A DNA stretch of 64,000 nucleotides from Pseudarthrobacter defluvii (lineage in GTDB: Bacteria > Actinomycetota > Actinomycetes > Actinomycetales > Micrococcaceae), in NCBI RefSeq assembly GCF_030816725.1, contig NZ_JAUSYG010000001.1, positions 3,162,001-3,226,000 on the forward strand, read 5' to 3'. Under the pieces are notes generated by a model. It was not told the DNA's origin and searched no databases. It worked only from the letters and a program-made list of their open reading frames with translations. A program made the translations under genes and the position numbers. Of the stretch, positions 28,071 to 53,440 are shown piece by piece. Every line of letters begins with the position of its first letter. The first letter of the stretch is position 1.

Positions 28071-28634
28071 CTACCCTAGCCTTTTACGACCTGCGCGCCA
28101 GGCGCGAAAACTGAGCACCAAAACGACAACTACTCCCGTCAGCATAAGTTTTCCAAGCATTTGACCCGCGAAGGCCTCTTCCAGTGGGAAACCTGCGATG
28201 TTCAGGAAGACGACCGTGTCAATTACGGAGCCAACGACGTTCGAAGCCACCGCAGCACGAATGTAGCCACGGGCCCTCAAAGGTGTGTAGACCGCGAAGT
28301 CGGCTATCTCAGATAGCAAGAACGCCACAGCGGACGCTACGGCGATGAACGGATCCGCCACCAGAAACGATAGGCCCGCGCCTCCGACGATCAAACCGAG
28401 GACCCACTTCTTCCCGAATGCGTCCTGGAGTGAGTCACGAAGAACGAAAGTCAGCCCGGCGAAATACGTTCCGGCGGTGGCCATCAAGCCAAACCCCACA
28501 GGGATGAACCCGAAATGAGTAGTCACGTAGTTTGCGGTGAGAATGCATGCCAGCAGGCCCAAGCCGGCAGCAACCCCCGCACCGACCGCCCGGATGCCCA
28601 GAGTTCCCGCTGAACGGATAGTCGTGGATGTCAT
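28071..28634 (-). CDS. VUT-family (YhhQ-like) transporter, probable queuosine-precursor importer
   Basis: This 187-residue membrane protein has about six hydrophobic segments and the VUT pattern: TANYVTTHFGFIPVGFGLMATAGTYFAG, LRDSLQDAFG, and FLLSEIADFAVYTPLR. The E. coli member YhhQ imports preQ0 and preQ1. Here it lies 155 bp after dpdD on the same strand, at the end of a system that consumes preQ0, so it would salvage the same precursor. The start at 28634 has AGGAG upstream; longer readings are unlikely. No known preQ1 riboswitch pattern was seen before it. Confidence 0.85.
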   Translation of the reverse strand: MTSTTIRSAGTLGIRAVGAGVAAGLGLLACILTANYVTTHFGFIPVGFGLMATAGTYFAGLTFVLRDSLQDAFGKKWVLGLIVGGAGLSFLVADPFIAVASAVAFLLSEIADFAVYTPLRARGYIRAAVASNVVGSVIDTVVFLNIAGFPLEEAFAGQMLGKLMLTGVVVVLVLSFRAWRAGRKRLG

Positions 28635-28789
28635 GGTGTCTCCTAGATTTCGCGAGGGCGCCGTGACACGCAGATGCAGCGAAAAGGTGTACCCCCATGA
28701 CCGAAATGGCCCCAACAACCTTAGATCGCGCCATCATGCAAGAACAAACCAGCAACTGACGCTTCACCGCTAGGTTGGTTTAAGGGTCA

Positions 28790-30820
28790 CTATGCGCCGA
28801 AGGCAATGATGCCTTCCTCAACGGCACGCATCATGGAACCCGAGCCACAACCATCGGCGTATGTGACTCGAGCACTTTGAGAGACATGACCCTGAATAAA
28901 AAGCGTGGCCGCATGCGTTGCCTTGCGGGTAGCGAGAACCACCAATTCAGCGTTGCGGGCGTGGGTTCGCAATGCATCGCTGCCGACCTTCGCATCGGAC
29001 ACGTGAAGCGTGATCGAGGGGTGAAGTTCAGCGACTGCGGTCTTCACTCGAGCAAGGACACCCTTGTCAAGGCTGTAAAGAAGAATCGAAGACGGCAGGA
29101 CGGATGATGAGACTTCGGCGTCGATGGGCGCTACGTTCGGGACAGTCCAGTTCCAGCCCAAGGCGAGGTCGTCAGTCACGAGAGCGGCCACCGTGCGGAG
29201 CGATTTGGAAAGCCGGTGACGCAACGCGTGTAGAGGCTCCAACGCACTCGCGACGAACCCCTGACGGGCATCGCTACTCGCCGAGGGTGCGCAGACAACT
29301 AGGTCAGCGATGTCGATGGCCGCAGCCGCGGTGTCAATTGACGACCAGCGGCCTTTGAACCCAGCAAGATCCTGGAGCAACTCCCCGTAGGCGCGGACAT
29401 CCGGTGCACCACGAAGAAAGATGCCAAGCAAGGCGCTTATGGCGCCCAAGTCACTCTGGGTGAGACGGTCGCCGAGTAGGTGCCGCAAAATGAGTTCTGC
29501 CGACGCCCTTCGTGCGGGTCTCGCGGGATCATCGGCATCGATGAAGGCGCCGAGTCCGGTGAACAACCGGTCGGTTAGGGACATATGGAGTTCTTGGATG
29601 GCGGCGGCGAGTTGCTCGTCGGATGCACCAGGTGAGGCCCATCCTTCCGTTACCTCCGAGGTTAGGGGCGCCTCATCGCCGGCAGCAATAGAAGCGAGCC
29701 ATTCGCCCCATGAACCGGGTGTAGCGTTTGGCCGCGGAACTTCAACGTCCGGTTCCCGGTCGAGGTCTGAGTTTCGTTCGTCGTCTTGCCCGTGTTCCGG
29801 TCCAACTTCTGGCTCGGGCACCATCTCGAACTTTTGGCCAGGCCTTTCAGTGACTGGCTCAAAGTGAGCTTGCAGGACAGTCTTCAACTCTTGGCGAAGG
29901 TCCGCGGCCCCATTCCCTTCTGAGTCAACTAGTCTGTGGGCGAGTTCAACGTCGCCCCTGGCTAGGGCAACAACTGCGCTTGCTGTCCACGCGTCCGCGT
30001 CAGTTGTATGGGCAAGCGTTTCATCGACGAGCAGGGCAATGTCAACACCAAGCTCATTCATCTCGTCACTCAGGGACTGTGCAAGGCCACGCCAGTCTTT
30101 GCCCGACTTACGGAACCAGGCGCCGAGAATAGCTTCCCGGACTAGGCGCGGCGGCTCAACTGCCACGACACTGCTCAAGGAAGGACTGCTTAGCACTTCT
30201 TGGTCCGCGCCGAGTTGACCGAGCCGCCGAAGTCGGAGAAATGCAACATTCTCATGCGACAGTCCACCGCTATGCTCAATGCTTTCAAGGAGTTCAAGCG
30301 ATGTTAGAGCCTGACCGGACGCGAGGGAGGTTTCAAAGTCACGGAGCAACCGACCGACCGGTCGTGGCATCGGACTAACGCGAGAGGGCCTTTGCTCAAT
30401 TGTGTCGACCATTCGGCTCAGTGATCGAAATAGCCCTCGATGGGCCCGCGTGTTCGGTGGTCGGAGCCGGTACGTTGTGCCAGGGCCCGCCAAGCTGAGT
30501 ATCGCCGCCTCGAACGGGTCGTCTTCATGCAATTGAGCTACGCGGCCGTCAAAATGACACCAATTATATTCGACCCCGGCGTTGAGAAGCATTCTGATGC
30601 GTCCTGCATGACTGCGCGACCAACAAATCACGTAGGTGTTGGACACCGGGCAATCTGCGTCCTTGCGAGGAAGCACCAGTGGCACCTCGCTCTTCTGGGA
30701 GAGAGCGCGAAGAAACCGCTCCAAATAGGCAGCGGAGGGATGCCGAGGATCCCGGTTGGGCCACACGGTGTTCGGCTCAGCGAAGACCGCTTCCAGAAAA
30801 TCAGTGTCGGAAAACTTCAT
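28790..30820 (-). CDS. dpdD: Dpd restriction component DpdD
   Basis: This 676-residue protein begins MKFSDTDFLEAVFAEPNTVWP, followed by a region rich in Trp/Arg (TYVICWSRSHAGRIRMLLNAG). The call as DpdD rests on position between dpdK and the end of the dpd cluster, on size, and on recalled family features; no enzyme motif was recognised. A long acidic low-complexity stretch (about residues 340-380) divides it into two halves. DpdD belongs to the genes that restrict unmodified DNA. The start ATG has AAGGAA upstream and overlaps the dpdK end by 20 bp. Confidence 0.75.
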   Translation of the reverse strand: MKFSDTDFLEAVFAEPNTVWPNRDPRHPSAAYLERFLRALSQKSEVPLVLPRKDADCPVSNTYVICWSRSHAGRIRMLLNAGVEYNWCHFDGRVAQLHEDDPFEAAILSLAGPGTTYRLRPPNTRAHRGLFRSLSRMVDTIEQRPSRVSPMPRPVGRLLRDFETSLASGQALTSLELLESIEHSGGLSHENVAFLRLRRLGQLGADQEVLSSPSLSSVVAVEPPRLVREAILGAWFRKSGKDWRGLAQSLSDEMNELGVDIALLVDETLAHTTDADAWTASAVVALARGDVELAHRLVDSEGNGAADLRQELKTVLQAHFEPVTERPGQKFEMVPEPEVGPEHGQDDERNSDLDREPDVEVPRPNATPGSWGEWLASIAAGDEAPLTSEVTEGWASPGASDEQLAAAIQELHMSLTDRLFTGLGAFIDADDPARPARRASAELILRHLLGDRLTQSDLGAISALLGIFLRGAPDVRAYGELLQDLAGFKGRWSSIDTAAAAIDIADLVVCAPSASSDARQGFVASALEPLHALRHRLSKSLRTVAALVTDDLALGWNWTVPNVAPIDAEVSSSVLPSSILLYSLDKGVLARVKTAVAELHPSITLHVSDAKVGSDALRTHARNAELVVLATRKATHAATLFIQGHVSQSARVTYADGCGSGSMMRAVEEGIIAFGA

Positions 30821-52597: not shown

Positions 52598-53387
52598 CGT
52601 ACAAGACGAAGTCGACGTCCGGGGCATTGCACTGGATGAAGTGGGAATCTCAGGGCTCAGGTATCCAACTGAGTTTACAGACGGGACAACGCGACAGGCA
52701 GGCATTGGCTCGTTCGATGTGCTGGTGACTCTTCCCTCAGATCGCAGGGGTACGCACATGAGTCGCATGGTTCAGTTGGTACAGGAGCAGTTGGCAGTCA
52801 TCGATCCGCGAGAACTGCCGCTGGTTATGAAGCATGTCGCAGCCAGAATGGACATCGACAGGGCACTCGTTCGGGTTGCATTGCCAGTAGCCACTACCGT
52901 CGTCTCGCCCGTGTCTGATCTGAAAGCGCTACAGACAAGTGACCTGCATCTGTCAGCCACCATTGACACGGGTTCATTTCGGCTTACCACGTCGATAACT
53001 GCACAGGTAACCAGCCTTTGCCCCTGCAGCAAGACCATTAGTGACTACGGTGCCCATAATCAACGCAGCGATGTGAAGGTATCGGTCTCCGGAACGGACA
53101 GCGACCCATACCCCATCAACATCAAGGATCTTGTCGACCTTATCCGAGCAAGCGGTTCATGCCCTGTCTACCCCGTCGTTAAGCGCCCCGATGAACGAGC
53201 CATCACTATGATCGCCTACGATAACCCGGCGTTCGTCGAAGACATGGCCCGAGACATCTCGCTGGAGTTGCGCGGAAGAAACGTCGGCCACAGTGTGCAA
53301 ATCCGCAACTTGGAGAGCATACATAGCCACGACGCCGTTGCCTCAGTTTCATGGGCTCCCCCGCCGGCCTCGACTGTCCAGACATAG
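52587..53387 (+). CDS. folE2: GTP cyclohydrolase FolE2 (type IB)
   Basis: This 266-residue protein has the FolE2 motifs GTHMSR (55-60) and SLCPCSK (C145, C147) followed by ISDYGAHNQRS. It opens GTP to 7,8-dihydroneopterin triphosphate, the first step to preQ0. It is the zinc-independent isozyme, unlike FolE. The start at 52587 has GGAG upstream; a GTG at 52572 is the alternative. A dedicated copy here makes the island independent of the folate enzyme. A strong terminator follows. Confidence 0.93.
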   Translation: MLPDVQDEVDVRGIALDEVGISGLRYPTEFTDGTTRQAGIGSFDVLVTLPSDRRGTHMSRMVQLVQEQLAVIDPRELPLVMKHVAARMDIDRALVRVALPVATTVVSPVSDLKALQTSDLHLSATIDTGSFRLTTSITAQVTSLCPCSKTISDYGAHNQRSDVKVSVSGTDSDPYPINIKDLVDLIRASGSCPVYPVVKRPDERAITMIAYDNPAFVEDMARDISLELRGRNVGHSVQIRNLESIHSHDAVASVSWAPPPASTVQT

Positions 53388-53400
53388 TCTCTGATGCCAC

Positions 53401-53440
53401 AGCGCCAGACACTGCCGCAAGTGCAGCGTCTGGCGCTTTT
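53401..53440 (+). terminator. Rho-independent terminator after folE2
   Basis: The ten-base arm AGCGCCAGAC (53401-53410) pairs exactly with GTCTGGCGCT (53428-53437), with partial pairing inside, and is followed by TTTT. It ends the queC-queE-queD-folE2 operon and lies just before the convergent helicase gene stop at 53442. Confidence 0.85.

What the first reader, a model, noticed from the sequence alone, without database searches (positions are those of the whole stretch)
28071..53440. Complete Dpd (7-deazapurine-in-DNA) modification and restriction island in an actinobacterium
Seen: dpdC, two DGQHR genes, dpdA, then dpdE-F-G-H-I-J-K-D on one strand with near-universal stop/start overlaps, and queC-queE-queD-folE2 divergent. 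Known: the Dpd system replaces some guanines in DNA with preQ0/ADG and restricts DNA lacking them. Inference: this strain's DNA carries dADG. A full set with its own precursor pathway in a high-GC soil actinobacterium extends the picture from Salmonella and is the main system in the window.
Basis: partly seen in the sequence, partly recalled or inferred. Interest (0 to 1): 0.85.

Follow-up and report, generated by a model that had tools for sequence, protein, structure and literature searches.

The report
Dpd DNA-base-swapping defence island
This bacterium, probably an Arthrobacter-like actinobacterium, carries a nearly complete gene island predicted to swap some guanines in its own DNA for a modified base and to attack DNA that lacks the mark; such islands are already known, in actinobacteria too.

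Summary
NCBIfam equivalog models place DpdA, two DpdBs, DpdD, E, F, G, H, J and K over their cut-offs; PADLOC recognises DpdC; QueC, QueE, QueD and FolE2 form a divergent preQ0 operon. DpdA aligns over residues 1-399 of 415 with the solved DNA-guanine transglycosylase 7ui4. DpdI rests on position and close relatives only. That the DNA carries dPreQ0/dADG and unmarked DNA is restricted is a sound, untested inference. The claimed extension to actinobacteria is not new: 333 unique actinomycetal islands and a validated Kineococcus case are in print. Added here: (1) the island holds the genome's only QueC, and neither QueF nor QueA was found, so its preQ0 has no known route to tRNA queuosine; (2) it lies in a variable region where two relatives hold other defence genes; (3) its two DpdBs are old paralogues: in 20 of 20 two-copy islands the copy before dpdA and the copy after it fall on opposite sides of one branch (100/99). 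Verdict: new member of a known kind, with a widespread two-DpdB layout worth testing.

The parts
28071..28634 (-). VUT/YhhQ-type transporter (187 aa from ATG 28634)
   Evidence: Pfam Vut_1 E 1.2e-10; 45-49% to VUT genes beside folE2 in L005-L008; start chosen
28790..30820 (-). dpdD
   Evidence: NCBIfam NF041061 466.9 bits, cut-off 300; PADLOC DpdD E 2.2e-201
30801..31337 (-). dpdK, PLD-type nuclease with an HxK(x4)D motif (HEKILTGD)
   Evidence: NF041068 171 bits, cut-off 100; PLDc_2; motif
31334..35734 (-). dpdJ, large DEAH helicase
   Evidence: NF041067 1530 bits, cut-off 800; Walker A-like and DEAH motifs
35731..36408 (-). dpdI by position: all-helical 225-aa protein between dpdH and dpdJ
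   Evidence: No profile match; 45-46% to the same slot in L006/L008, 28-30% in L007/L005, no hit in L010; AF2 model all-helical, pLDDT 82.7
36398..39406 (-). dpdH, with an AAA-like Walker A motif
   Evidence: NF041065 857.8 bits, cut-off 450; motif
39406..40239 (-). dpdG
   Evidence: NF041064 90.9 bits, cut-off 80; start preceded by GAAGGAG
40239..42821 (-). dpdF, RecQ-like helicase
   Evidence: NF041063 712 bits, cut-off 550
42814..46032 (-). dpdE, SNF2-type helicase
   Evidence: NF041062 984.9 bits, cut-off 500
46033..46425 (.). 393-bp gap between dpdB1 and dpdE; likely boundary of modification and restriction operons
   Evidence: The only non-overlapping junction of 11; no consensus promoter or terminator found
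46426..47529 (-). dpdB1, DGQHR protein downstream of dpdA
   Evidence: NF041060 502.5 bits, cut-off 300; DGQQR at 123
47522..48769 (-). dpdA, DNA-guanine transglycosylase
   Evidence: NF041059 588 bits, cut-off 200; PDB 7ui4 E 9.1e-115 over residues 1-399
48766..49899 (-). dpdB2, DGQHR protein upstream of dpdA
   Evidence: NF041060 382 bits, cut-off 300; PADLOC DpdB E 3.4e-140; ParB/sulfiredoxin-like N-domain in the AF2 model (middling Z)
49896..50780 (-). dpdC, predicted to convert preQ0 in DNA to ADG
   Evidence: PADLOC PDLC02817 E 9.3e-106; 44-46% to the same slot in L005-L008 and L010
50891..51580 (+). queC, preQ0 synthase (true start probably 50891)
   Evidence: TIGR00364 206.5 bits, cut-off 150.3; only QueC match in the genome
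51468..52217 (+). queE, 7-carboxy-7-deazaguanine synthase (true start probably later, since homology begins at residues 31-41)
   Evidence: TIGR04508 340 bits, cut-off 240
52214..52597 (+). queD
   Evidence: TIGR03367 115 bits, cut-off 89.25
52572..53387 (+). folE2, GTP cyclohydrolase
   Evidence: NF010200 225.5 bits, cut-off 215

Best explanation
A Dpd restriction-modification island of the two-DpdB layout, probably gained horizontally. FolE2, QueD, QueE and QueC make preQ0 from GTP; DpdA, with the ParB-like DpdB proteins, exchanges chosen guanines in DNA for preQ0; DpdC converts the cyano group to the amide, giving dADG. DpdD to DpdK, probably a separate operon with three helicases, an ATPase and a PLD nuclease, act against DNA lacking the mark. 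Shown here by sequence: gene content and order, family membership of every part but DpdI, open frames, and that the island holds the only QueC of the genome. Inferred from characterised systems: the chemistry, the final base and the restriction. Inferred here: DpdB1 and DpdB2 are distinct subunits rather than redundant copies.
For: Equivalogs over cut-off for DpdA, B (twice), D, E, F, G, H, J, K; DpdC by PADLOC; DpdA match to 7ui4 over residues 1-399, with D93, D254 and C362/C364/C367 invariant in 25 of 25 aligned DpdA rows (their catalytic and zinc roles are recalled from the TGT family). Same modification and precursor genes in five named genomes of Microbacterium, Leifsonia and Agromyces. 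One QueC in the genome, the island's; no QueF or QueA, searches that ring in 8 and 9 of 14 control genomes. A second VUT gene lies about 1.3 kb from the genome's other TGT-family match, about 490 kb from dpdA. Island GC 57.4% against 67%; DpdA over its cut-off in none of 36 other same-genus genomes.
Against: No chemical or restriction data. DpdI rests on position: a profile of 15 rows finds the enterobacterial slot protein only at E 0.011 in a search of four sequences, and the slot in L010 gave no hit. DpdC is not named by NCBIfam and is sub-threshold in Pfam. A simple Walker A pattern was not found in DpdE or DpdF. Whether preQ0 also enters tRNA through the other TGT-family protein is untested.
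Confidence: 0.9

Rival explanations
1. The island modifies DNA but its restriction half is inactive, so it acts mainly as a protective mark.
For: A review calls the restriction cluster presumptive (passages of PMC12707154); GATOR-GC reports islands that lack the restriction operon. DpdI is not recognised, DpdG only just exceeds its NCBIfam cut-off, and a simple Walker A pattern was not found in DpdE or DpdF.
Against: All eight restriction-slot frames are open and overlap; six of the eight are far over their cut-offs; DEAH motifs are present in DpdE, F and J, Walker A-like motifs in DpdJ and H, HxK(x4)D in DpdK.
Confidence: 0.15
2. The final base is dPreQ0 rather than dADG, or another derivative, because this DpdC is diverged.
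For: DpdC is sub-threshold in Pfam and not named by NCBIfam, and 21% identical to the enterobacterial dpdC-slot protein.
Against: PADLOC DpdC E 9e-106 and a conserved dpdC slot in five of five named Microbacterium, Leifsonia and Agromyces islands.
Confidence: 0.15
3. The two DGQHR proteins mean a phosphorothioate (Dnd) system rather than Dpd.
For: Both match Pfam DndB.
Against: Both exceed the DpdB equivalog cut-off and score far below the Dnd-specific DGQHR model (42-44 bits, cut-off 450). No DndC, D or E family is listed for the 18 proteins scanned at E 0.01; the neighbouring PLD-helicase matches a Dnd restriction domain model at 65.9 bits, cut-off 600.
Confidence: 0.01
4. The second DpdB is a recent, redundant duplicate.
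For: Two DpdB genes in one operon; GATOR-GC found dpdB to be the gene with the most additional copies (n=801).
Against: Across loci the two kinds are about 33-42% identical, and the positional copies form opposite sides of one branch in 20 of 20 two-copy islands (100/99).
Confidence: 0.05

Closest known systems
Dpd islands of Microbacterium, Agromyces and Leifsonia (L005-L008, L010)
   Same: dpdC-dpdB2-dpdA-dpdB1 with divergent queC-queE-queD-folE2 and VUT; DpdA 69-72% identical
   Different: There the restriction genes run convergent to dpdB1 and VUT follows folE2; here the restriction operon is codirectional and VUT follows dpdD. The unnamed same-phylum genome G088 has the codirectional order.
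Enterobacterial Dpd island (Enterobacter plasmid L003; dpdA match in 159 of 5426 E. coli genomes)
   Same: dpdC-slot protein, dpdA, dpdB and the dpdD-K set
   Different: A single dpdB, which falls with the downstream DpdB copies; no preQ0 genes annotated in the 41-kb stretch shown.
Kineococcus radiotolerans Dpd island
   Same: Actinobacterial; DNA modification experimentally validated according to PMC11888242
   Different: Not compared at sequence level here.
Alphaproteobacterial plasmid Dpd loci (L004, L105, L106, L110-L115)
   Same: dpdC-dpdB-dpdA-dpdB-queE order (dpdC not hit in L115)
   Different: DpdA only 37-40% identical; several show no restriction genes within the stretch fetched.

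Membership tests
Dpd system | DpdA of the DNA-type transglycosylase family | tested here: met
   NF041059 588 bits over 200; 7ui4 alignment over residues 1-399
Dpd system | DpdB (DGQHR protein) | tested here: met
Dpd system | DpdC | tested here: met
   PADLOC DpdC E 9e-106; not named by NCBIfam, sub-threshold in Pfam
Dpd system | Restriction genes dpdD, E, F, G, H, J, K | tested here: met
   All seven over NCBIfam cut-offs
Dpd system | dpdI | tested here: inconclusive
   Right slot; homologous to the slot in L006, L008 and L122; not significantly similar to the enterobacterial slot protein
Dpd system | preQ0 supply | tested here: met
   QueC, QueE, QueD, FolE2 over cut-offs
Dpd system | dPreQ0/dADG in genomic DNA | not testable with these tools
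   Needs mass spectrometry
Dpd system | Exclusion of unmodified DNA | not testable with these tools
   Needs transformation or phage assays
Dnd phosphorothioation | DndC, D, E core | tested here: not met
   No such family listed for the 18 proteins scanned; the rest of the genome was not searched for Dnd
BRIGADE (Dpd-like) | Usually two YprA-type helicases; described from halophilic archaea | tested here: not met
   One DpdJ match; the other two helicases match the DpdE and DpdF models. Definition from passages of PMC12458937

The most novel reading that the evidence does not exclude
The dpdC-dpdB2-dpdA-dpdB1 layout is a distinct, old Dpd class in which two ParB-like paralogues form an obligate hetero-complex around DpdA, for instance one choosing the DNA target and one driving base exchange, unlike the single-DpdB enterobacterial system on which the mechanism was worked out.
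Probability: 0.4. Interest if true: 0.5.

Novelty: new member of a known kind. Interest (0 to 1): 0.3.

Why it matters
The island itself is one of hundreds already catalogued. It is a clean test case all the same: a closed genome in a genus that otherwise seems to lack preQ0 synthesis (39 of 40 relatives without any QueC match), with no QueF or QueA found, so that deleting one operon should remove all de novo 7-deazaguanine from the cell. The two DpdB paralogues raise a direct question that the single-DpdB enterobacterial model cannot answer: why 20 of the 25 islands laid out here keep two such partners for one transglycosylase.

Tried and rejected

DpdB tree. The first tree included an extra DGQHR-like protein of G088 (L122) on a very long branch; the split then had support 58/78 and appeared in 60% of 200 bootstrap trees. 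With that row dropped it is 100/99 and 100%. In one search the program also warned that long branches meet and that L115_dpdB2 and L003_dpdB1 are long. The labels B1 and B2 came from best hits and were then held against the gene order: 20 of 20 two-copy islands agree. Of the 25 DpdA loci laid out (window included), 20 had two DpdBs, 1 had one (L003), and 4 (L107, L108, L109, L116) gave no DpdB hit at E 1e-5 in the stretch fetched; L107 does have a gene annotated DndB.

Literature. Primary Dpd papers (Thiaville 2016, Yuan 2018, Gedara 2023, the 2024 review) are not held, so whether the two-DpdB split is already described there is unknown; two searches and the GATOR-GC text showed only the copy count. 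One held paper names DpdC as DUF328, another as DUF6884.
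Full report
What is there. The window lies in a 4.58-Mb genome held as one contig. Its 28.07-53.39 kb stretch encodes a Dpd island. NCBIfam equivalogs over cut-off: DpdD, K, J, H, G, F, E, DpdB twice and DpdA. DpdC is PADLOC DpdC, E 9e-106, though NCBIfam does not name it and Pfam DUF6884 is sub-threshold. QueC, QueE, QueD and FolE2 exceed their cut-offs and run divergently. A VUT/YhhQ-type transporter follows dpdD. The dpdI slot holds an open frame (233 aa from the first listed start, 225 aa from ATG 36408) without any profile match over threshold.

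Anatomy. With starts picked by eye from the list, 10 of 11 junctions from dpdC to dpdD overlap; the one gap, 393 bp between dpdB1 and dpdE, suggests two operons, modification and restriction. DpdK has an HxK(x4)D motif, DpdJ and DpdH Walker A-like motifs, DpdE, DpdF and DpdJ DEAH; the simple Walker A pattern was not found in DpdE and DpdF (motif names recalled). DpdA aligns over residues 1-399 with 7ui4, a DNA-guanine transglycosylase; a passage names 7UI4 as the Salmonella Montevideo DpdA.

DpdI. Eight database relatives were found at E 0.001, none with a telling name. A profile of 15 rows (window, six loci, eight database proteins) finds the slot protein of G088 (L122) at E 3.4e-12 and the enterobacterial one only at E 0.011, in a search of four sequences; hhalign gives the latter a probability of 0.7%. 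Both end in a similar short C-terminal pattern, seen by eye. So the set is complete by position; for dpdI, homology to the enterobacterial gene is not shown.

Precursor economy. QueC occurs once in the genome, in the island. QueF and QueA give no match, in searches that ring in 8 and 9 of 14 control genomes. Of 40 same-genus relatives 39 have no QueC match; one (G021) has a match to positions 2-61 of 210 at 21.5 bits, which the tool counts as over the cut-off of 22 with its neighbours; I read it as not QueC. A weak TGT-family match (22 bits to the DpdA model) elsewhere in the genome lies about 1.3 kb from the genome's other VUT gene: probably a queuine salvage pair for tRNA, an inference. So the island appears to bring a private preQ0 supply for DNA. 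Whether the other TGT also uses preQ0 is open.

Mobility and setting. Island GC is 57.4% against 67.4% and 66.8% in the flanks. Transposase genes of IS21 type and, by domain content, IS3 type lie at the left edge. DpdA exceeds its cut-off in 1 of 59 relatives (the own genome; 36 others are same-genus), 2 of 396 genomes sampled from the order, 3 of 394 from the class and 2 of 396 from the phylum, each count including the own genome. The permease at 60301 has a near-full-length copy at 88-94% identity in 27 of 40 same-genus relatives. The left flank (about 19.7-23.1 kb) is linked to it in 2 of 6 relatives tested, at about 40 and 54 kb, against 37 kb here. Of 25 window proteins searched against 11 stretches beside that permease in 8 relatives, only the PLD-helicase and one small ORF matched at E 1e-10; most of these stretches are 20 kb long, so Dpd further away was excluded only. 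In relative G1144 the region holds PglW, PglX and BrxC/PglY matches (BREX/Pgl); in G001 the PLD-helicase, a DrmD-like helicase and a type IIG enzyme (6 proteins scanned). About 1.6 kb of the G1144 region was not fetched. I read this as a defence hotspot with Dpd as one of its occupants; the evidence is two occupied relatives.

Against what is known. GATOR-GC (section 37 read in full) lists 2,335 unique windows in eight phyla, 333 of them in Actinomycetota, notes 801 additional dpdB copies and preQ0-gene and YhhQ neighbours, and cites validation in Kineococcus. [quoted passage not shown] Montevideo. For DpdB2, 4164 of 7997 scored candidates (a capped set) pass E 1e-20; among the 120 listed are named hits in Arthrobacter, Kribbella, Nocardioides, Rhodococcus and others. 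The closest named organisms (Arthrobacter sp. 24S4-2, A. pascens) suggest an Arthrobacter-like host, an inference. The finding is a solid new member of a known kind; the two-DpdB class is the part worth following.

Noticed in passing
window 53442-56822 (-): PLD-helicase-DUF3427 protein (PADLOC mREase_IV, 1147 bits), convergent with folE2; found at 88-90% in two relatives, where homology begins at residue 73, so the listed TTG start is probably too early.
   Followed up: yes
window 58253-60205 (-): Protein-kinase-domain gene in the lowest-GC part of the right flank, beside the permease; matches PADLOC kinase models mad6 and PD-T4-6. The neighbouring ORFs 56530-58353 have no family over threshold.
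   Followed up: partly
window 57912-58179: Short stretch 84-88% identical to DNA beside the same permease in three relatives (L143, L149, L150).
   Followed up: no
window 23484-27218: IstA/IstB-type genes and an IS3-like transposase gene at the left edge of the low-GC region.
   Followed up: no
L105 16678-18367, L110 10657-12313, L115 10076-11614: In three alphaproteobacterial plasmid Dpd loci a hypothetical protein plus a HAD hydrolase follow queC or VUT; possible unrecognised accessory pair.
   Followed up: no
L108 14158-18132: Paenibacillus plasmid Dpd locus with a long dpdA (2070 bp), a second TGT-family gene nearby and no DpdB hit.
   Followed up: no
L122 11456-12184: The G088 island carries an extra, very diverged DGQHR-like protein beyond dpdD.
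   Followed up: partly
own genome C1:3697731-3699920: TGT-family match beside a second VUT gene, probably a separate queuine salvage pair.
   Followed up: partly
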